Assembly: GCF_028416635.1 (NCBI RefSeq)
Contig: NZ_CP114013.1
Coordinates: 3,720,001-3,784,000 of the forward strand
Direction: 5' to 3'
Length of the DNA: 64,000 nt
Source: Baekduia alba
Lineage (GTDB): Bacteria; Actinomycetota; Thermoleophilia; Solirubrobacterales; Solirubrobacteraceae
How positions within the stretch are numbered: the stretch's first letter is position 1; every line of letters begins with the position of its first letter. A program made the position numbers and the translations under genes. This document shows, piece after piece, positions 44,085 to 56,240 of this stretch. The notes beneath the pieces are model-generated. The model was not told the DNA's origin and made no database searches. It saw only the letters and a program-made list of their open reading frames with translations.

Positions 44085-46202
44085 ATGGCTCCCCTGCGTC
44101 CCGTGATCCGTGTGCTCTTCGACGAGGCCCATCAGGAGGCCTGGACCGTCCGGCCGGAGGTCGCGGCGCGCATGCAGCCCTCGCATCCCGCCGACGTGTC
44201 CTACGCGCGCGCGGCCCACCTCCTCCGCGCCCGGCGCGTCGAGGTCGACGCCCACGCCAAGGGCCCGCTCGGCGCGCAGGCGCTGAAGCAGGCCGACGTC
44301 GTCGTCCTCGCCCACCCCTCCGAGCCCAAGTGGGAGGCCACGACCGGCGCCGGCGCCCCCGTCCTGGCCGACGCCGAGCTCGACGCGCTCGAGGCGTACG
44401 TGAACGCCGGCGGCGGCCTCGTCGTGCTCGGCGAGAGCGAGCAGGACAAGTACGGCAACAACCTCAACGCGCTGCTCGCACGCTTCGGGATCCAGATCGA
44501 CCACGCGACGGTCCAGGACTACGAGCGCAACCTCAACAGCACGCCGTCCTGGGTCCGCGCTGACCTCGGCACCGGCGAGCGCGGCGCGGGCGGCGACCTG
44601 CTGGCCGGGGTCAACGGCGCGTGCTTCTACCGCGCCGGCACGTTGACCGTCACCGACGCGGGCGCCGACTTCCAGGTGCTCGCGAGGACGACCGCCTCCG
44701 CGAGCGCGCCCAACGCGCCGCTGGCGATCGCGCTGCGCCACGGCGCGGGGCGCGTGGTCGCGCTCGCCGACTCCGACCTGTTCGGCGACGACTGCCTCGG
44801 CGACCTCGGCCACGAGGCGCTGTGGACCAACATCATGGCCTGGGTCGCCCAGCACGCCTATGCGACGCCGGCCGCGCCCGCGGTCTCCGCCGCCGCCGCC
44901 GACCCCGCGTGGGCCGCGCTGCGCGACGCGACCGACGCGCTGCGCGTCCTCCAGGAGGCCGACGGCTCGCTGGACGCGACCAAGCACGACGCGAACGCGG
45001 CGCGTGCGCTGGTCGACACGATGGCGACGAGCGTCGAGGCCCTCGCCCCGCGCTTCCCGCACCAGCGCGAGCACCTCGCGGCGACCGTCGCCGACCTCCG
45101 CGCGTGGGACTTCGGCAAGCCGGACTTCACCGCCGCGCTGGAGCGGTTCCGCCCCGACCGCGATCGCGCCGACGGCATCGAGCACCTCGTGCTCTTCCCC
45201 ATGTACACGCAGAACGGCTCGCGCGACACGCGGTACGAGGCGCTGCTGATCCGCACGCCGTGGCCGGCGTGGCTCGCCGAGCTCGAGCGCGACCGCTATG
45301 ACAACGCGAAGTTCGTGCCGGTCACGCTGACCGACAACACCGCGGGCTACGACTCCGAGTGCGCCGTGCTGTTCCCGGAGACCGTGTCCGTCGCCGGCAA
45401 GCCCGCCAACCACTTCGGCGGCATCTTCTGCGACCGCGAGGCCGAGCGCTTCCGCCGCGTCGTCCGCGCCGCGGCCGACACCGTCGGCCTCAACCTCCCG
45501 CCCGACGCCGGCGCGCTGCTGCGCTCCGAGCGCCTGTCGCTCGACACCTACGTGCTGTGGGACCTCGTCCACGACCGCGCCCACAGCCGCGGCGATCTGC
45601 CGTTCGACCCCTTCATGATCCGCCAGCGCATGCCGTTCTGGATGTACTCGCTGGAGGAGCTGCGCTGCGACCTGACCGCGTTCTCGGAGGCGGTGAAGCT
45701 CGAAGGCGAGGGCATGGCCTTCGCGCGCAACGTGCAGTACGCGATCCTGTTCGACCGCATCTTCCGCTTCCCGGTGACGGGCACGCGCGTGCGCAACTAC
45801 GATGGGCTCGGCGGGCAGCTGCTCTTCGCCTACCTGCACCGCCACGGCTTCGTGCACTGGACCGACAACCGCCTGACCGTCGAATGGGACCGCCTCGCCG
45901 AGGGCGTCGCGGGCCTGCGCGCCGACGTCGAGACGCTCTACCGCGAGGGCATCGACCGCTCCAAGCTCGCGCAGTGGGGCGCCGCGCACGACCTCGTCGC
46001 GCGCTACGTGCCGGCCGCGTCGGGCTCGGCCTGGGTCGCCGGGACGCGCGCCTACGCCGACGTCGAGGACCCGCGGCCCTACATCGACGACGTCAAGCCC
46101 GACGAGTTCCCGCTGAGCATGTTCTACACCTCGCTGAAGGCCAAGCTGGCGCCGACGCTGGTCCGCCCGGACGCGCCGCGGCGTGAGGCGGTGCCGGCGT
46201 GA
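44085..46202 (+). CDS. DUF6421-family protein with N-terminal glutaminase-like fold
   Basis: A 705-residue protein of unknown function. Residues about 5-260 look like a DUF4350/ThuA-type flavodoxin-like domain (IRVLFDEAHQEAW, ADVVVLAHPSEPKW, GGGLVVLGESEQ, VVALADSDLFGDD). The rest matches what I recall as DUF6421, conserved in Streptomyces. This part has a possible metal-site pattern: His496-x3-His500 (LVHDRAHSRG) and, 24 residues later, Glu524-Glu525 in LEELRCDL, loosely like the H...H/EExRxD pairing of M49 peptidases. That comparison is speculative. The next gene overlaps its stop (GTGA). First gene of an Lrp-divergent operon. Confidence 0.75.
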   Translation: MAPLRPVIRVLFDEAHQEAWTVRPEVAARMQPSHPADVSYARAAHLLRARRVEVDAHAKGPLGAQALKQADVVVLAHPSEPKWEATTGAGAPVLADAELDALEAYVNAGGGLVVLGESEQDKYGNNLNALLARFGIQIDHATVQDYERNLNSTPSWVRADLGTGERGAGGDLLAGVNGACFYRAGTLTVTDAGADFQVLARTTASASAPNAPLAIALRHGAGRVVALADSDLFGDDCLGDLGHEALWTNIMAWVAQHAYATPAAPAVSAAAADPAWAALRDATDALRVLQEADGSLDATKHDANAARALVDTMATSVEALAPRFPHQREHLAATVADLRAWDFGKPDFTAALERFRPDRDRADGIEHLVLFPMYTQNGSRDTRYEALLIRTPWPAWLAELERDRYDNAKFVPVTLTDNTAGYDSECAVLFPETVSVAGKPANHFGGIFCDREAERFRRVVRAAADTVGLNLPPDAGALLRSERLSLDTYVLWDLVHDRAHSRGDLPFDPFMIRQRMPFWMYSLEELRCDLTAFSEAVKLEGEGMAFARNVQYAILFDRIFRFPVTGTRVRNYDGLGGQLLFAYLHRHGFVHWTDNRLTVEWDRLAEGVAGLRADVETLYREGIDRSKLAQWGAAHDLVARYVPAASGSAWVAGTRAYADVEDPRPYIDDVKPDEFPLSMFYTSLKAKLAPTLVRPDAPRREAVPA

Positions 46203-46885
46203 GCCGCCCGCTCGACGGCCGCCGCGTGGCGGTGGCCGGCGCGGGCGGGGGCCTCGGCCCGACGGTCGTGCGCGCGCTCGCCGACGCCGGGGCCTGGGTC
46301 GCCGCCGCCGACCGCACGGTGGACCACTGCTCGCCGGTCGCCGAGATCGCCGACGTCGTCCACGGCGTCGACCTGCTGACCGCCGCGGGCGCCCAGCAGT
46401 GGGCCGACGCGGTCGGCCCGGTCGACGCGGTCCTGCACCTCGTCGGCGGCTGGCGCGGCGGCAAGAGCGTCGAGGACATGGACCTGGCCGACCTCGACCT
46501 GCTCGAGGACCTGCTGTTCCACACGGTCGTGCACACGACGCGCGCCTTCGCGCCGCTGCTGAAGGCCGCGGGCGCCCGCGGGCGCTTCGCGCTGGTCTCC
46601 TCGTCGGTCGTCGGCCACCCGACCGCCGGCAACGCCGCCTACGCGGCGACCAAGGCGGCCGCCGAGGCCTGGACGCTCACGCTCGCCTCCGAGCTGGCCG
46701 AGACCGGAGGGACGGCCAACGTCGCCGTCGTCACGGCGATCGCCACGCCGCAGATGCGCGAGGAGAACCCGGACAAGGCCTACAAGTCGTTCACCGACGT
46801 CGGCGAGATCGCCGACGCCCTCGTCTTCCTGTGCTCGGACGCCGCCCGCAAGATGAACGGGCAGCGGCTGCACCTGCACGGCTAG
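46199..46885 (+). CDS. Short-chain dehydrogenase/reductase
   Basis: A 228-residue SDR. The cofactor motif is VAGAGGGLGPTVVRAL (about 12-27), in which the usual TGxxxGxG begins with Ala. VLHLVGGWRGG replaces the NNAG block. The catalytic Ser is in LVSSSVVGH, and Tyr and Lys are in YAATKAAAEAW. GTG 46199 overlaps the DUF6421 stop (GTGA), so the two proteins are made together and may act on one substrate. The short C-terminus (NGQRLHLHG) is usual for small SDRs. Confidence 0.9.
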   Translation: MSRPLDGRRVAVAGAGGGLGPTVVRALADAGAWVAAADRTVDHCSPVAEIADVVHGVDLLTAAGAQQWADAVGPVDAVLHLVGGWRGGKSVEDMDLADLDLLEDLLFHTVVHTTRAFAPLLKAAGARGRFALVSSSVVGHPTAGNAAYAATKAAAEAWTLTLASELAETGGTANVAVVTAIATPQMREENPDKAYKSFTDVGEIADALVFLCSDAARKMNGQRLHLHG

Positions 46886-46896
46886 CCTGCAGGCCC

Positions 46897-47928
46897 ATGC
46901 GCGCGTTCGCCTCCGACAACTACGCCGGTGCCCACCCCGAGGTCCTCGCGGCCATCGCGGAGGCCAACGTCGACCATGCCGTGTCCTACGGCGCCGATCC
47001 GTGGACGGCGCGGGCCAACGAGCTGATCCGCGCGCAGTTCGGCGCGCAGGCGCAGCCGTGGCTGGTCTTCAACGGCACGGCGGCCAACGTCCTGTCGCTC
47101 GGCGCGCTGACGCGCACGTGGGAGTGCGTGGTCACGCCCGAGACGTCGCACCTGCACGTCGACGAGGCCGCCGCGCCCGAGCGCCTGGCCGGCGTCAAGC
47201 TGCTCACGCTGCCGACCGAGGAGGGCAAGCTCAGCCCGGCGCAGATCGAGCCGCTGCTCGCGCGCCAGGGCGACGAGCACGCGCCGCAGGTGCGCGTCGT
47301 CTCGGTCGCCAACACGACCGAGCTGGGCACCGTCTACAGCGTGGCGGAGATCCGCGCGCTGGCCGACGTCGCCCATGCCAACGGGCTCCTGCTCCACGTG
47401 GACGGCTCGCGGCTGGCCAACGCCGCGGTCGCGACCGGCGCCTCGCTGGCCGAGCTGACCACCAAGGCCGGCGCCGACGCCGTCTCGTTCGGCCTGACCA
47501 AGAACGGCGCCCTGGGCGTCGAGGTCGTCGTCTTCCTGCGCGATCCCGGCCCCGAGGGCTTCGCCTGGCTGCGCAAGCAGCACGCGCAGCTCTCGTCGAA
47601 GATGCGCTTCCAGGCGGCGCAGGTCGTCGCGCTGCTGGAGGACGACCTCTGGCGCCGCTCGGCCGCGCACGCCAACGCGATGGCCGCCGCGCTGGCCCAG
47701 CGCGTCGCCGCGATCCCCAGCATCCAGCTGACCCGCCCGGTCCAGGCCAACGCGGTGTTCGCGCTCCTGCCGCGCGAGCTGGCCGACGCCGTCCGCCCCG
47801 ACTTCCCGTTCTACACCTGGGACGAGTCCACCGGCGAGGTCCGCTGGATGTGCTCCTGGGACACGACCGAGGACGACGTCGCGGGCTTCGCGGCGGCGCT
47901 CGAGCGCGCGGCGGCCGCCACGGCATAG
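46897..47928 (+). CDS. Low-specificity L-threonine aldolase / beta-eliminating lyase family
   Basis: A 343-residue PLP enzyme of the aldolase type that splits threonine into glycine and acetaldehyde. FASDNYAGAHPEVLAAI replaces the usual SDT start. VFNGTAANVLSLGAL binds PLP phosphate. LLLHVDGSRLANA carries the Asp that pairs with the ring nitrogen, and the PLP lysine lies in FGLTKNGALGVEVV. Twelve bases after the SDR gene on the same strand. Substrate range is not fixed by sequence; serine, phenylserine or allo-threonine are possible. Confidence 0.9.
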   Translation: MRAFASDNYAGAHPEVLAAIAEANVDHAVSYGADPWTARANELIRAQFGAQAQPWLVFNGTAANVLSLGALTRTWECVVTPETSHLHVDEAAAPERLAGVKLLTLPTEEGKLSPAQIEPLLARQGDEHAPQVRVVSVANTTELGTVYSVAEIRALADVAHANGLLLHVDGSRLANAAVATGASLAELTTKAGADAVSFGLTKNGALGVEVVVFLRDPGPEGFAWLRKQHAQLSSKMRFQAAQVVALLEDDLWRRSAAHANAMAAALAQRVAAIPSIQLTRPVQANAVFALLPRELADAVRPDFPFYTWDESTGEVRWMCSWDTTEDDVAGFAAALERAAAATA

Positions 47929-47937
47929 GGTTGTGCG

Positions 47938-49101
47938 GTGAGCGACGCCGCGCAGCTGCTCGAACGTCACCAGCCCTACCTGAAGTACGACAGCCAGGAG
48001 GCGTTCTTCGCCGACGCCGCCGAGATCTTCGTCGAGAGCCCCGGGATGCGGCTGCGGCGCAAGGGCAGCAGCGCCGACGTCGCGGTCGCGGGCGACGCGC
48101 TCTCGCTCGCGTTCCTGGCGACCGACCCCGACCCGTATCCGGGGACGGCGCTCAAGCCCGCCGCGACCGACACGGTCGGCGTGCCCGACAAGGACTACCG
48201 TGCCCGCGCCGCCGCGCTGCATGTGCAGCCCGAGCTGCGCAACGTCTGCTACGGCCACGTCATCGCCGATCGCGACGGCGCGCGCTGGTTGCAGTACTGG
48301 TACTTCTATTTCTACAACGACTACAACCTGATCGGCCGCGTCATCAAGGCGGGCCTGCATGAGGGCGACTGGGAGACCGTGCAGGTGCGGCTGAACGCCG
48401 CCGACGAGCCCGACTACGCCGTCTACGCCCAGCACTCGCACGCGGCCGGGCGGCCGTGGGACCAGGTCGAGCGGGTGCCGGCGACGCAGCGGCCGGTCGT
48501 CTACGTCGCGCGCGGATCGCACGCCGCCTACTTCGAGCCCGGGACCAAGTGGACCGGCGTGTGGTTCGACTACGCCGACGGCAAGCGCCAGAGCCCGGAG
48601 CGCCAGCGGCTCGTCGAGATCGTCAAGGGCGACGCCGCCGTGCGGTGGGTCCGCTGGCCGGGCCGTTGGGGCGACACGCCGAAGGGGCCGCTGCCGCAGG
48701 ACGCCGACAGCCCGCGCTCGCCCGGCTCGCACACGCAGTGGCTCGACCCGCTGGCGCTGCTCGACGTCGCCGCGACGGCCGCGCCGGCGCTCGTCCCCGC
48801 CGACCGCCCCGCCCCGCCCGCGGCGCCCGGCGTGACGCTCACGCGGCTGGCCGGCGGCGACGCGCGCCTGGACTGGACGGTCGTGCCCGGCGCCGACGGG
48901 ACGCTGCCGACGGCGCTGACCATCACCATCAACTCGAAGGACGAGCCGGCCCCGCCGCGGACGTTCAACAAGGCGATCGACGGCACCGGCGGGTCGGTCG
49001 CCCTGGAGGGCCTGGACCCGGCCAACCGCTATGACGTGTTCGTCAGCGACGTGTCGACCGACGGCATCGCGTCCGAGTCCGTCCGGCGCGACCTGGCTTA
49101 G
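47938..49101 (+). CDS. Vps62/DUF946-related protein with C-terminal fibronectin-III-like domain
   Basis: A 387-residue protein from GTG 47938, ten bases after the aldolase gene. The core (about 10-265) has WLQYWYFYFYNDYNLIG, LHEGDWETVQVRL, YAQHSHAAG and YVARGSHAAYFEPG. These are the aromatic and His-rich blocks of the Vps62/DUF946 group known from fungi, plants and some bacteria, with no established activity. The conserved His and Glu could form a metal site. Residues about 285-387 form a fibronectin-III-like beta-sandwich after a Pro/Ala linker. No signal peptide is obvious. It overlaps the convergent helicase gene by four bases. Confidence 0.75.
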   Translation: MSDAAQLLERHQPYLKYDSQEAFFADAAEIFVESPGMRLRRKGSSADVAVAGDALSLAFLATDPDPYPGTALKPAATDTVGVPDKDYRARAAALHVQPELRNVCYGHVIADRDGARWLQYWYFYFYNDYNLIGRVIKAGLHEGDWETVQVRLNAADEPDYAVYAQHSHAAGRPWDQVERVPATQRPVVYVARGSHAAYFEPGTKWTGVWFDYADGKRQSPERQRLVEIVKGDAAVRWVRWPGRWGDTPKGPLPQDADSPRSPGSHTQWLDPLALLDVAATAAPALVPADRPAPPAAPGVTLTRLAGGDARLDWTVVPGADGTLPTALTITINSKDEPAPPRTFNKAIDGTGGSVALEGLDPANRYDVFVSDVSTDGIASESVRRDLA

Positions 49102-51150: not shown

Positions 51151-53298
51151 GTGAGCCGGCCACGCCGCGACCTCCTCGCGCTCGGGCTGTCGTCGCTGGC
51201 GGCGCTGGCCGCCGTGCTCGCGATCGTCACGCTGTACCTGCGCCAGGAGGTCGCCGACCGCGACGCCTTCGCCGATCGCGCGGTCGCGGCGCTGCAGGAG
51301 CCCACGGTGCGGGACGTCGTCGCGCGCGAGATCGTCGTCGGCCTGCTCGAGCGCGGGTCGCCCGACCTCGTCACCGCGCGTCCGCTGCTGGAGAGCGCGG
51401 TCGGCGCGGTCGTCGGGACCGATCCGTTCCGGGCGCTGGTGCGCGGCGCGGCGCTGCAGGCCCACAGCCTGCTCTTCGACCGCGGCAACGCGTTCGTGCT
51501 CGACCTCGCCGACACCGGGACGGTCGTGATCTCGGCCGTGCGCAGCCTCGCGCCCGACGTCGCCGCGCGGCTGCCCGCGCACGCCGACGCGACGCTGATC
51601 GACCTGCGCGATCGGCCGTTCGCCGACGACACGCTGCGCGCCGCGGACAAGATCCGGACGTGGGCGCTCGTCCTGCCGTTCCTCGCGCTCGGGCTGCTGG
51701 CGGCGGCGGTGGCCGTGGCCCCCGACCGCGGCCGCGCGCTGACGGCCTTCGGGCTCGCGGTCGGCGTCGTCGCCATCGTCGCCGAGATCGCGCTGGCGAC
51801 GGCCCGCACGCTCGTGCTGCGCGACCTGCACGGCACCGACGCGGTCCCGACGGCGGACCTGCGCACGGCGGTCGGCAGCGTGTGGGACGCGTTCCTCGGC
51901 GACCTCGGCGGGCTGCTGCTGATCGCCGGGGTGGTCGGCTTCGTCCTGGCCGCCGGCGTCCTGTCGGCGATCGACCCGGACGCCGTGCGCCGCCAGGTCG
52001 CGCGGGTCACGCGGCGCCCGACGGCGCCGGCGGCGCTCGGCGCCCGCGGCGTGACGATCGCGGTCGCGGGCCTCCTGGTGCTGCTGGAACCCGACCTCGC
52101 GCTGCGCATCCTGGCCTACGTCCTGGGGGCCGGCCTGGTGTACGTCGGGAGCACGGAGCTGCTGACCGCGCTCGGGCGCGCGGGGCTGCGGCACTCCGGG
52201 CCGGCGCCGGCGCCCGAGCCGGCGCCGGGCGGTGCGCGGCGACGCCTGACGATCGCCGGCGCCACCGCGGTGCTCACGCTCGTCGTCGCCTCCGGCGCGG
52301 CGGCGCTGGTGCTGCGCGAGGAGCGGCCGGAGAACGACGCCGCCGCCACGCCCGCCGCCGGCTGCAACGGCTCGACGGCGCTGTGCTCGCGGCGGCTGAA
52401 CGAGGTCCTGTTCCCGGGCACGCACAACTCGATGGGCGCCGCGGACGTCGCCGGCTGGTCGCTGCCCGACCAGCGGCGCTCGATCCCGCGCCAGCTCAAG
52501 GACGGCATCCGCCTGTTCCTGTTGGACCCGCACTACGGACGGACGCTCAACGGCGGCCGCGTGCAGACCGACTTCGCCGGCGAGGGACGCGACGCCAACA
52601 AGGTCGCCAAGGAGCTCGACGACGGTGCGCTCGTGGCGCTGGACCGCCTCGGCGTGAACATCACGCGCACGCAGAGCGGCGCGCGCGGGCCGCGCGAGGT
52701 CTGGCTCTGCCACACGGTGTGCGAGCTCGGCGCGACGCGGCTGACCGACGTCCTGACCTCGATGCGCCGGTACCTGGTGGCCAACCCGGGCGTGGTCGTG
52801 GAGCTCGTGCTGGAGTCCTACGTCACCGACGCGAGCCTGCGCGAGGCCTTCGAGGACACCGACACCGTGAAGTACGCGGCGACGCTGGACCACAGCGCGC
52901 CGCTGCCGACGCTCGGCGAGCTGGTGGCCGACGGCACGCGGATGGTGGTCTTCACCGAGCACACACCCAGCGGCACGGTCCCGTGGCTCAACGACGGGTT
53001 CTCGTGGATCCAGGACACGCCGCTGGGCAACCGCGCGCCAGGCGACTTCGCCTGCCAGCGCTTCCGCGGCACGAGGACGAGCCCGATGTTGATGCTCAAC
53101 CACTGGATCGAGCGCTTCCCGCCGTCGCCCACCGCGCAGCGGCCGATCCTCACCCAGGCGTTCCTCGAGCGGCGGATCGCGCAGTGCGAGAAGGAGCGCG
53201 GGATGCCGGTGTCCGGGATCGCGGTGGACTACTACGACGAGGGCGACGTCGTGCGCGTCGCCGCCGAGCACAACGCCAAGCCCGTGGAGGCGCCGTGA
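51151..53298 (+). CDS. Multi-pass membrane protein with extracellular PI-PLC X-like domain
   Basis: A 715-residue protein. Helices are predicted near residues 8-30, 170-190, 197-217, 250-270, 300-340 and 367-386. A soluble PLC-like phosphodiesterase domain (about 400-715) follows, with His425 in FPGTHNSMGA and His521 in VWLCHTVCE in the place of the two catalytic histidines. Four or five cysteines around the domain suggest an extracellular location. The substrate could be a phosphoinositide, another phosphodiester lipid or a polymer. The next gene overlaps the stop (GTGA). A close membrane-anchored PLC of this layout is not one I can name. Confidence 0.8.
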   Translation: MSRPRRDLLALGLSSLAALAAVLAIVTLYLRQEVADRDAFADRAVAALQEPTVRDVVAREIVVGLLERGSPDLVTARPLLESAVGAVVGTDPFRALVRGAALQAHSLLFDRGNAFVLDLADTGTVVISAVRSLAPDVAARLPAHADATLIDLRDRPFADDTLRAADKIRTWALVLPFLALGLLAAAVAVAPDRGRALTAFGLAVGVVAIVAEIALATARTLVLRDLHGTDAVPTADLRTAVGSVWDAFLGDLGGLLLIAGVVGFVLAAGVLSAIDPDAVRRQVARVTRRPTAPAALGARGVTIAVAGLLVLLEPDLALRILAYVLGAGLVYVGSTELLTALGRAGLRHSGPAPAPEPAPGGARRRLTIAGATAVLTLVVASGAAALVLREERPENDAAATPAAGCNGSTALCSRRLNEVLFPGTHNSMGAADVAGWSLPDQRRSIPRQLKDGIRLFLLDPHYGRTLNGGRVQTDFAGEGRDANKVAKELDDGALVALDRLGVNITRTQSGARGPREVWLCHTVCELGATRLTDVLTSMRRYLVANPGVVVELVLESYVTDASLREAFEDTDTVKYAATLDHSAPLPTLGELVADGTRMVVFTEHTPSGTVPWLNDGFSWIQDTPLGNRAPGDFACQRFRGTRTSPMLMLNHWIERFPPSPTAQRPILTQAFLERRIAQCEKERGMPVSGIAVDYYDEGDVVRVAAEHNAKPVEAP

Positions 53299-54035
53299 CC
53301 ATCACCTATGACCTGAGCCGCCGGCGCCTGGACGACGACACGTTCACCACCATCTACGCGACGCGCCATCCGCGCGCCGGCACGCGGGTCCGGGCCGAGC
53401 ACTTCCCCGAGCCCGCGCGGCTGGACGTCTGGTGCGCGACGCAGGGCGTGCCCGAGGCCATCATCGGCGGCTTCTTCCTGCGCGACCCGTTCCGGCCGCT
53501 GGGCGAGCTGTGGCTGGACGGCGCGGCGGTCGGGCACGAGACGGTCGCCAACGGCTTCGCGGCGACGCGGGCGGTCGTGCACGTCGACGGCGACGGCCTC
53601 GCCTTCGGCCCGCGCTCGGCGTTCCCGGACGCGCCGGCGGGCGACCTCCTCCAGGCCGGCCCACTGCTGGTCGCCGGCGGGGAGGTCGTCTTCGACGGCA
53701 GCGACCCGGAGGGCTTCTCGGCGACCGCGACGCAGTTCGACTCCGACATCACCGTCGGGCGCCATCCGCGCGCCGCGCTGGGCCTGACGGAGACCGAGAT
53801 CGTCGCGGTGGCGTGCGACGGGCGGCGGTCGGGCGTCGACGCCGGGCTGACGATGGCCGAGCTCGCGCAGGTGCTGCGCGACCTCGGCGCGACCGACGCC
53901 ATCAACCTGGACGGCGGCGGCTCGACGACGCTCGTGCACCGCGGCCACCTGCTCAACCGGCCCTACTCCGAGCAGGACCAGCCGGCGCCGGAGTCGCGCC
54001 CGATCGTCAGCGCGCTGCTGCTCGAAGCGCGATGA
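53295..54035 (+). CDS. Phosphodiester glycosidase (NAGPA-like) family protein
   Basis: A 246-residue protein from GTG 53295, coupled to the PLC-like gene. PEAIIGGFFLRDPFRPLGEL, RSGVDAGLTMAELAQVLRDL and AINLDGGGSTTLVHRG are the diagnostic blocks of the NAGPA domain, which in animals removes GlcNAc from mannose-6-phosphodiesters and in bacteria acts on phosphodiester-linked sugars. No signal peptide is present, so it appears cytoplasmic unless exported with help. Length equals one domain. The pairing with a PLC-like phosphodiesterase suggests a joint phosphodiester-sugar substrate. Confidence 0.88.
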   Translation: MTITYDLSRRRLDDDTFTTIYATRHPRAGTRVRAEHFPEPARLDVWCATQGVPEAIIGGFFLRDPFRPLGELWLDGAAVGHETVANGFAATRAVVHVDGDGLAFGPRSAFPDAPAGDLLQAGPLLVAGGEVVFDGSDPEGFSATATQFDSDITVGRHPRAALGLTETEIVAVACDGRRSGVDAGLTMAELAQVLRDLGATDAINLDGGGSTTLVHRGHLLNRPYSEQDQPAPESRPIVSALLLEAR

Positions 54036-54367
54036 TGGCGGGTGCCATGACCGACCTCCCCACGCCCGTGGCGACGCTCCTGGCCGCCGCCAACGCCAAC
54101 GACGTCGACGGGTTCCTGGCGGCGTTCACCGCCGCCGGCGTCGTCGACGACTGGGGCCGGGAGTTCCGCGGCGCCGACGCGATCCGCGACTGGAGCGACG
54201 CGGAGTTCATCGGCGTGCAGGTCGCGCTCGACGTCACCGAGGTGCAGCAGCGCGGCGACGAGACGATCGTCACCGCGCAGGTCGGCGGCGATGGCTTCAA
54301 CGGCCCCAGCCACTTCGCGTTCACGGTCGACGGCGACCGCGTCGCCCGCATGGCGATCCGCGCCTGA
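54032..54367 (+). CDS. SnoaL/NTF2-like protein
   Basis: A 111-residue alpha+beta cone protein. LLAAANANDVDGFLAAFTAA (about 14-33), VDDWGREFRGADAIRDWSDA and DGDRVARMAIRA are typical for SnoaL-like polyketide-cyclase/isomerase folds, whose members range from enzymes to binding proteins. Start choice is open: ATG 54032 and 54035 overlap the previous stop (ATGATG), and ATG 54047 gives MTDLPTP. The first fits the coupling seen in this trio. Function unknown. Confidence 0.85.
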   Translation: MMAGAMTDLPTPVATLLAAANANDVDGFLAAFTAAGVVDDWGREFRGADAIRDWSDAEFIGVQVALDVTEVQQRGDETIVTAQVGGDGFNGPSHFAFTVDGDRVARMAIRA

Positions 54368-54392
54368 GCGGCGCGGATCGCCGGGGGCGGAC

Positions 54393-56240
54393 CTACTCGG
54401 GGGCGACCAGCGAGAACCGGCCGACGAGGGTGCGCAGCTCGGAGGCCGTGGCGGCCAGGGTCTGCGCGGAGGCCGCGATCTGCTCGGTCGAGGCCGACGT
54501 CTCCTCGGTCGAGGCCGAGACCTGCTGCGTGGCGGCGCTCGTCTGCTCGGCGACCGCGGCCACCGAGGCGACCTCGTGGCCGACCTGCGACGACGTCGCC
54601 GACAGCTGCTGGGCGGCGGCGGCGATCTGCGACACGCGGCCGCTCATCTCCTGGACGTGGTCGTTGATGACGTCGAAGGCCTCGCGGGCCTGCTCGACGA
54701 CGCCCGCGCCCTCGTCCGTGCGCTGGCCGCCGAGCTCGACGACCTCGACCGCGCGCTTGGTCTCGTTCTGGATCTCGCCGATGAGGGTCGAGATCGAGGC
54801 GGCCGCCTGCTGGGACTCCTCGGCCAGCTTGCGGACCTCCTCGGCCACGACGGCGAATCCGCGGCCCTGCTCGCCCGCGCGCGCCGCCTCGATGGCGGCG
54901 TTCAACGCCAGCAGGTTGGTCTGCTCGGCGATCGTCGTGATGGTGTCGACGATGCCGCCGATCTGCTCGGACTTCGAGCCGAGGTCGCGGATCGCCTCGG
55001 TCGCCTCGGTCGAGGCGGAGCGCACGGCGGCCATCGCCTCGGTGGCCTGCGCGACCGACGCGGCGCCGGCCGTCGCGACCTCGCGGGCGGCCTCGGCGGC
55101 GCGCGCGGTCTCGGCGGCCGACTCGGCGGAGCTGCGGGTCGCGTCGGCCATCTCGTCGGTCAGGCGCCGTGCGCCCTCGACGGTGTTGACCTGGCGCTCG
55201 GCGCCCGCCGCGACCTCGCCGATGGCGTGCGCGATCTCGCCGACGGCGCGACCGGCCTCCTCGGAGGTCGACGCCATCTGCTCCGACGCCGAGGACAGCA
55301 CGATCGCGCTCTCGCCGACGCGGCCGATCATGCCGGCCAGCGAGTCCAGCGACGCGTTGTAGCCGTCGATCGACTTCGCGGTGTCGACCGTGATCTCGTC
55401 GACCATCTCGGCGATGTCGCCGATCTCGTCGCTGGACACGCGGCCGCGCGGCCGGGTGGCGACGGCGGCCTTGCGGGTCAGGTCGCCCTCGGAGATCGCG
55501 ACGAGGCCGTCGCGCAGGGAGGCGGTGTCGTTCTCGCGCAGCGACGTGAGCTGCTTGCGAATGCGGGTCACGCCGCGCTTGACCTGGCCGGAGATCAGCA
55601 GCGCGGCGGCGAGGCCGAGGATCGCGGCGAGGGCGAGCGCGCCGAGGATCAGCGTGCGGCCCGTGGTGAAGGCGTCGCCGATCTTGGCGTTCGCGGCCTT
55701 CGCGCTCTTGTCGCTCGCGGTCGCCATGGCCAGCGAGTTCGCGTCGATGGTCGCGACGTCCTTGCCGATCGCCACGCTGAGCGTGGCGTTGCGCGGATCG
55801 TCGGGCTTGAGCTTGAGCAGCGTGGCCAGGTCGGCCTTGTAGGCCTTGCTGCCGGTGAGGATCTTCGCGACGTACGGCTTGAGCGCGGTCGGCGCCTGGT
55901 TCAGCGACGCGGCGATGGCGGCGAGCGCCTTCTCGTCCTTGGCGATGGCGGGCAGGAGCGGCTTCGCGCGCGGGTCCTTGCCCGCGGCGGCGACGTCCCC
56001 GCCGTGCTCGGCCACGATCTGGCTGTACGTCGCGCCCTGCAGCGCGAGGTCCTTGGACAGCGCGTTGGTACGGAGCGCGGCCGTCGTCGGCGTGTAGGTC
56101 TCGTTGTAGAGGTTGGAGCCCTGGTCCTTGACGTCAGCGAGGCGCGTGATGGCGAGGAGCGCGATGACCGCGGTCAGGACGATGAGCAGCAGGGTGCTGG
56201 CGAGGAGCTTCGTGCGAATGGACAGACGCAATGCGCCCAT
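54393..56240 (-). CDS. Methyl-accepting chemotaxis protein
   Basis: A 615-residue receptor. TM1 is residues 9-31, followed by a periplasmic-type four-helix sensor (about 35-190), TM2 about 193-215, a HAMP region, and a long signalling coil (about 300-600). The hairpin tip [20 protein letters not shown] is intact, with [20 protein letters not shown] after it. Ala/Glu/Ser heptads at both ends provide methylation sites. No che or flagellar gene is in the window, so it is an orphan receptor here. Confidence 0.95.

What the first reader, a model, noticed from the sequence alone, without database searches (positions are those of the whole stretch)
51151..54367. Coupled trio: membrane PLC-like enzyme, phosphodiester glycosidase, SnoaL-like protein
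Two enzymes that cut phosphodiester bonds from opposite sides, lipid/polymer and sugar, are translationally coupled with a small binding-type protein. The first acts outside and the second has no signal peptide, so a substrate may be cut outside and finished inside. I know no described system with this layout.
Basis: partly seen in the sequence, partly recalled or inferred. Interest (0 to 1): 0.6.

Follow-up and report, generated by a model that had tools for sequence, protein, structure and literature searches.

The report
Recently joined PLC–phosphodiester glycosidase operon
Three overlapping soil-bacterium genes really are there (a membrane-anchored phospholipase C-like enzyme, a sugar-phosphodiester-cutting enzyme and a small common fold protein), but a sister species has the same surroundings without the last two, so this looks like a recently assembled operon, with only one other species seen to place the two enzyme genes side by side.

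Summary
The three ORFs exist and overlap as described. The first (51151-53298) is a predicted seven-TM protein with an extracytoplasmic PI-PLC-fold domain (VIA Z 20 to Listeria PI-PLC; catalytic-type His425 and His521 invariant in 27 relatives) that no Pfam model covers. The second (53295-54035) is a genuine NAGPA-family protein (PF09992 E 5e-29; Z 26 to BACOVA_00430) without a signal peptide and with the main conserved residues kept. The third is an ordinary SnoaL_2 protein, one of 27 above cut-off in the genome.

The trio is not a conserved system. A congeneric species keeps the whole block at about 80% DNA identity, but its PLC runs straight into the MCP gene: the 1.1 kb NAGPA+SnoaL segment is missing there. 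PLC-family genes mostly stand apart from NAGPA, and type-A NAGPA mostly has other neighbours. The genome's other NAGPA (type B) belongs to a far better conserved pair, with a GT4 glycosyltransferase (32 of 34 loci).

The PLC/NAGPA link is not pure chance: the window NAGPA's sister, in G308, also abuts a PLC, from the other half of the PLC tree and in the opposite order. Most likely: a recent operon of two loosely linked phosphodiester enzymes in different compartments. A stepwise outside-inside pathway is untested.

The parts
51151..53298 (+). 715-aa membrane protein: seven predicted TM segments plus a C-terminal PI-PLC-fold domain
   Evidence: ORF; hydropathy and loop charges; AlphaFold model and VIA match Z 20 to 1aod
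51172..52314 (+). membrane module (residues 8-388): TM1, ~136-residue external helical segment, then six TM segments; N-in, C-out by the positive-inside rule
   Evidence: occurs alone in L061 and L062 and as a separate gene upstream of the PLC gene in L054
52354..53286 (+). PI-PLC-fold catalytic domain (residues 402-712); GTHNS His425 at 52423-52425, His521 at 52711-52713; all six cysteines of the protein lie here and are invariant in 27 relatives
53295..54035 (+). NAGPA (phosphodiester glycosidase family), 246 aa, no signal peptide, GTGA overlap with the PLC stop
   Evidence: PF09992 102 bits; VIA Z 26.2 to 3ohg and 25.0 to 6pku; conserved residues
53904..53924 (+). NLDGGGS motif of NAGPA (residues 204-210), identical in all 77 outgroup proteins
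54032..54367 (+). SnoaL_2/NTF2-like protein, up to 111 aa (start ATG 54032, 54035 or 54047)
   Evidence: PF12680 29.8 bits, cut-off 27; one of 27 in the genome above cut-off
53275..54395 (.). segment absent from the syntenic locus of sister species G206 (L131), where 62 bp lie between the two aligned flanks
   Evidence: blastn of window against L131: 46002-53274 and 54396-59991 align at 80% and 78%

Best explanation
A recently assembled three-gene operon, not an inherited system. Gene 1 is an older membrane phosphodiesterase: a 7-TM anchor holds a PI-PLC-fold domain outside the membrane, where two histidines (425 and 521) would act as general base and acid to cut the phosphodiester of a phospholipid such as PI, PIM or a relative, leaving diacylglycerol. 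Gene 2, a cytoplasmic phosphodiester glycosidase of type A, was placed behind it together with an unrelated SnoaL-fold gene; it would hydrolyse a sugar-1-phosphodiester (a glycosyl-phosphate compound or a nucleotide sugar) to free sugar and phosphate monoester. The two enzymes work in different compartments and share at most a general role in turnover of glyco-phospho compounds, which may explain why this NAGPA sublineage has come to lie beside a PLC gene at least twice. Shown: gene layout, families, predicted folds, conserved residues, presence/absence difference between sister species, two separate juxtapositions. Inferred: topology, cleavage chemistry, substrates, functional link, direction of change (gain rather than loss). 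Unknown: role of the SnoaL protein.
For: Overlapping ORFs. Sister species G206 with the same block but no NAGPA/SnoaL; window and G206 PLCs are sisters, 100/100. PLC in 33 and NAGPA in 52 of 199 class genomes, with only two same-neighbourhood cases besides the window. Separate juxtaposition in G308: NAGPAs of window and G308 are sisters (95/87) while their PLCs lie in opposite halves of the PLC tree (100/100) and the gene order is reversed. Chance of one more touching pair among ten genomes about 0.012, of two pairs within 4 kb about 0.0002 (rough, after the fact, ignores shared ancestry). Topology: charges on the predicted inner loops, a relative with a signal peptide before the PLC domain (L058), six invariant cysteines in the external domain.
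Against: Recurrence beside a PLC (G308, and looser in G157, G306, G309) hints at a more specific partnership than this account grants. Whether the 1.1 kb segment was gained here or lost in G206 is not settled by two genomes; the other congeners searched lack the PLC. No expression or enzyme data.
Confidence: 0.6

Rival explanations
1. Dedicated two-compartment pathway: the external PLC domain releases a phospho-sugar head group (for example a glycosylated inositol phosphate or a glycosyl-phosphodiester), which is imported, and the cytoplasmic NAGPA splits the sugar from the phosphate.
For: Gene overlap with a good ribosome-binding site; external versus cytoplasmic location; a second, separate juxtaposition in G308; PI and PIM are reported among polar lipids of a Solirubrobacter strain (PMC10722151).
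Against: Sister species has the PLC without type-A NAGPA; type-A NAGPA occurs in genomes with no PLC found (G172, G371, G063, G085); no transporter in the operon; a PI-PLC releases a cyclic or linear phosphate monoester, which is not itself a sugar-1-phosphodiester unless the head group carries one (known chemistry).
Confidence: 0.17
2. NAGPA is a cytoplasmic nucleotide-sugar or glycosyl-phosphate hydrolase unrelated to the PLC; the operon is a positional accident.
For: The vertebrate enzyme also hydrolyses UDP-GlcNAc (PMC12024695); the type-B relatives lie beside a GT4 glycosyltransferase, a nucleotide-sugar user, in 32 of 34 loci; NAGPA-A neighbours differ between most genomes.
Against: Recurrent PLC proximity of type A is unlikely by chance.
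Confidence: 0.2
3. PLC and NAGPA act on the same side because NAGPA leaves the cell by a non-classical route or is held at the membrane through the PLC or SnoaL protein.
For: Tight coupling of the genes; described bacterial NAGPA domains often sit in exported proteins.
Against: No signal peptide or TM segment in any type A or B protein aligned; type B is linked to a cytoplasmic-type GT4.
Confidence: 0.03

Closest known systems
Bacterial PI-specific phospholipase C (Listeria, Bacillus, S. aureus; e.g. 1aod, 1ptd, 3v18)
   Same: PI-PLC barrel fold over residues 404-712 (Z 19-20), GTH(D/N) motif with the first catalytic His, QLxxGIR segment
   Different: Anchored by a seven-TM module; about 15% identity; no Pfam PLC model reaches its cut-off; DPHYG after the second strand; six invariant cysteines
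NAGPA / DUF2233 phosphodiester glycosidases (vertebrate 'uncovering enzyme' 6pku/6pkg/6u11; BACOVA_00430, 3ohg; Slr0280, 5h3k)
   Same: Fold (Z 22-26) and NLDGGGS, R, DGR, E residues
   Different: Cytoplasmic, stand-alone; V/I in place of the Asn of the N-G-G-F motif seen in solved relatives; Asp/Glu at position 182 where most other bacteria have Ser/Ala
Type-B NAGPA + GT4 glycosyltransferase pair of Thermoleophilia (own genome C1:2.876-2.879 Mb)
   Same: Same NAGPA family, no signal peptide
   Different: Conserved gene pair with a glycosyltransferase; nearest PLC in any such locus read is 5 kb away (L064)
Two-enzyme TelC (lipocone) + NAGPA surface proteins of Bacillota (PMC12419801)
   Same: A NAGPA combined with an enzyme proposed to cut lipid-linked phosphates
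   Different: One large exported polypeptide, different lipid-cleaving fold, both domains outside the cell

Membership tests
PI-PLC-like phosphodiesterase superfamily | PI-PLC barrel fold | tested here: met
   VIA Z 20.0, rmsd 3.6, 239 residues to 1aod; the first 24 rows are all bacterial PI-PLC
PI-PLC-like phosphodiesterase superfamily | two catalytic histidines | tested here: met
   His425 (in GTHNS, aligned with Listeria GTHDT) and His521 invariant in 27 relatives; the match of His521 to the second PI-PLC His is by position only
PI-PLC-like phosphodiesterase superfamily | substrate-binding Arg after the second strand (Arg69 of the B. cereus enzyme, from memory) | tested here: inconclusive
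   DPHYG stands there (His461 in over 90% of relatives); no residue-level structure overlay was available
Pfam PF00388 (PI-PLC-X) | score over the curated cut-off | tested here: not met
   no match in the window protein; weak matches in 3 of 16 relatives, best E 0.01. Filed in the fold superfamily, not in PF00388
PI-PLC-like phosphodiesterase superfamily | cleavage of phosphatidylinositol | not testable with these tools
   needs an enzyme assay
NAGPA (PF09992) | score over the curated cut-off | tested here: met
   102 bits against 25
NAGPA (PF09992) | DUF2233 fold | tested here: met
   Z 26.2 to 3ohg, 25.0 to 6pku; model pLDDT 87
NAGPA (PF09992) | family-wide conserved residues | tested here: met
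   R159, D175-G176-R177, G184, E189, N204-S210, N221 agree with 77 outgroup proteins
NAGPA (PF09992) | Asn of the N-G/A-G-F motif | tested here: inconclusive
   V/I57 in all Thermoleophilia members aligned; Asn in solved relatives, but the motif was found in only 21 of 77 outgroup stretches by a crude search
NAGPA (PF09992) | phosphodiester glycosidase activity | not testable with these tools
   needs an enzyme assay
SnoaL_2 (PF12680) | score over the curated cut-off | tested here: met
   29.8 bits against 27
Conserved PLC/NAGPA/SnoaL system | gene order kept in relatives | tested here: not met
   absent from sister species locus L131 and from all other PLC loci read
Recurrent PLC/NAGPA pair | adjacency in a separate lineage | tested here: met
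   one case, G308 (L125): NAGPA then PLC, 24 bp apart

The most novel reading that the evidence does not exclude
A cytoplasmic NAGPA sublineage has been recruited at least twice to partner a seven-TM PI-PLC-fold enzyme, forming a two-compartment route that turns over a phosphodiester-linked glycolipid or cell-surface polymer.
Probability: 0.13. Interest if true: 0.55.

Novelty: new variant of a known kind. Interest (0 to 1): 0.3.

Why it matters
If the link is real it would give a first substrate context for cytoplasmic bacterial NAGPA proteins and for a widespread, unnamed membrane PLC family of Thermoleophilia that Pfam does not cover. As it stands, the useful results are that family (7-TM module plus PI-PLC-fold domain) and the conserved NAGPA-B/GT4 pair, which is a better entry point to NAGPA function in these bacteria than the trio.

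Tried and rejected
Pfam, NCBIfam, PADLOC and PHROGs scans gave no PLC model for the first protein and no defence or phage system for the trio (PHROGs gives only weak, unnamed matches to NAGPA). A PDB sequence search with the single PLC sequence found only one weak match to an OxyA protein, taken as chance; a profile was needed. Foldseek on the full-length PLC model gave one clear hit (a PI-PLC) and many chance matches to membrane proteins. The genome-contig scan with NAGPA-A mostly returned distant NAGPAs. A phylum-wide search (396 genomes) found no close NAGPA relative outside the class. SnoaL beside PLC in Conexibacter-type loci (L074, L077, L138) was considered as support for the trio and set aside: different position, different gene neighbours, and SnoaL proteins are abundant. 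The 5 kb PLC/NAGPA distance in G122 (L064) concerns a NAGPA beside its GT4, of the type-B context. Literature: no paper found on a PLC/NAGPA operon; Das et al. 2013 on DUF2233 is not held.

Full report
What is there. Three ORFs run in one direction with overlapping ends: 51151-53298, 53295-54035 and a third ending at 54367. The second starts with GTG inside the stop of the first, four bases after GGAGG; the third can start at ATG 54032, 54035 or 54047. The unit is bounded by a divergent HelD/HelR-like gene and a convergent MCP gene. The window lies in a 5.86 Mb single-contig genome.

First protein. No protein-family library names it. A profile of 16 relatives' C-terminal domains finds Listeria PI-PLC in the PDB (E 7e-6), and the AlphaFold model of the full protein (mean pLDDT 81, above 90 over most of the domain) matches bacterial PI-PLC at Z 19-20 over residues 402-712. 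His425 of GTHNS and His521 are invariant in 27 relatives, as are all six cysteines of the protein, all in this domain. Seven hydrophobic segments with positive loops on the predicted inner side put the domain outside; one relative carries the PLC domain alone behind a signal peptide (L058), one has the membrane module and the PLC domain as two overlapping genes (L054), and the membrane module occurs alone (L061, L062). Disulfides and topology are inference.

Second protein. It is a clear NAGPA member, with the fold of BACOVA_00430 and the vertebrate uncovering enzyme (Z 26.2 and 25.0) and the positions that are nearly fixed among 77 distant bacterial relatives. Two differences from many relatives stand out: V/I57 in place of Asn in the N-G-G-F motif of solved relatives (the Asn may not be universal) and Asp/Glu182 instead of Ser/Ala. 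None of the aligned Thermoleophilia members has a signal peptide.

Two NAGPA types. Type A (window-like) was found in about a dozen genomes of the order; type B includes the paralog in the same genome at C1:2878149. Type B lies next to a GT4-type glycosyltransferase in 32 of 34 loci; type A does not, apart from an outlying member in G063. The GT4 pair is the conserved NAGPA context in this class.

Is the trio conserved? No. In the same-genus genome G206 the PLC (76% identical) sits in the same block (DUF6421 protein, SDR, aldolase, Vps62-like, HelD, PLC, MCP, glucoamylase-like, Vgb-like), and the window DNA aligns at 80% up to 53274 and at 78% from 54396, with 62 bp between in G206. G206 has only the type-B NAGPA and no close relative of the SnoaL protein. 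Elsewhere PLC genes have many different neighbours.

Is the PLC/NAGPA pair chance? Probably not wholly. In G308 a NAGPA lies 24 bp upstream of a PLC on the same strand; in G157 they are 1.2 kb apart and divergent, with a baeRF-like gene between; in G306 and G309 about 5.6 and 6.6 kb apart in a shared layout. The window and G308 NAGPAs are sisters (95/87), but their PLCs come from opposite sides of the PLC tree (100/100), and the order is reversed, so these are separate juxtapositions. A simple simulation gives 0.012 for one extra touching pair and about 0.0002 for two pairs within 4 kb in ten genomes; it ignores shared ancestry and was done after seeing the data. Against this, type-A NAGPA (counting the outlying G063 and G085 members) is present without any PLC found in G172, G371, G063 and G085, and apart from the PLC in G111, G198, G213, G220, G307 and G370.

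Mechanism. The PLC chemistry (His base/acid attack on the lipid phosphodiester outside the membrane) follows from the fold and residues; PI and PIM exist in at least one Solirubrobacter strain (PMC10722151). The NAGPA chemistry (release of a sugar from a phosphodiester) follows from the family; UDP-GlcNAc hydrolysis by the vertebrate enzyme is reported (PMC12024695), so a cytosolic nucleotide-sugar role is a serious rival. An outside-then-inside pathway would need an importer, which the operon lacks, and a head group that carries a glycosyl phosphodiester. The SnoaL protein is one of 27 in the genome above cut-off and adds nothing to the argument.

Verdict. Observation confirmed; interpretation partly supported: a recently assembled operon of known kinds of protein, with a weak recurrent link between two of them.

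Noticed in passing
G000:C1:2876747-2878928 (L078:4748-6929): The paralogous type-B NAGPA abuts a GT4 glycosyltransferase gene (31 bp between); the same pair recurs in 32 of 34 type-B loci of the class. A conserved pair for which no paper was found.
   Followed up: partly
L054, L058, L061, L062: The 7-TM module and the PLC domain of the PLC family are separable: alone, as two overlapping genes, or with a signal peptide.
   Followed up: partly
L070, L079, L133, L136, L144: A ~240-290 aa protein family (F4, hydrophobic N-terminus, no Pfam match in the one tested) recurs within three genes of the PLC, in four of five loci directly beside it.
   Followed up: partly
L126, L127, L141: Neighbourhood of PLC, baeRF-like protein, CitMHS and AbgT transporters and a peptidase-like protein, in which NAGPA-A is present (L126, L127) or absent (L141).
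   Followed up: no
window 44103-49101: A DUF6421 protein with a ThuA/DUF4350-like N-terminus heads a tightly spaced four-gene run (DUF6421, SDR, aldolase, Vps62-like) kept in G206.
   Followed up: no
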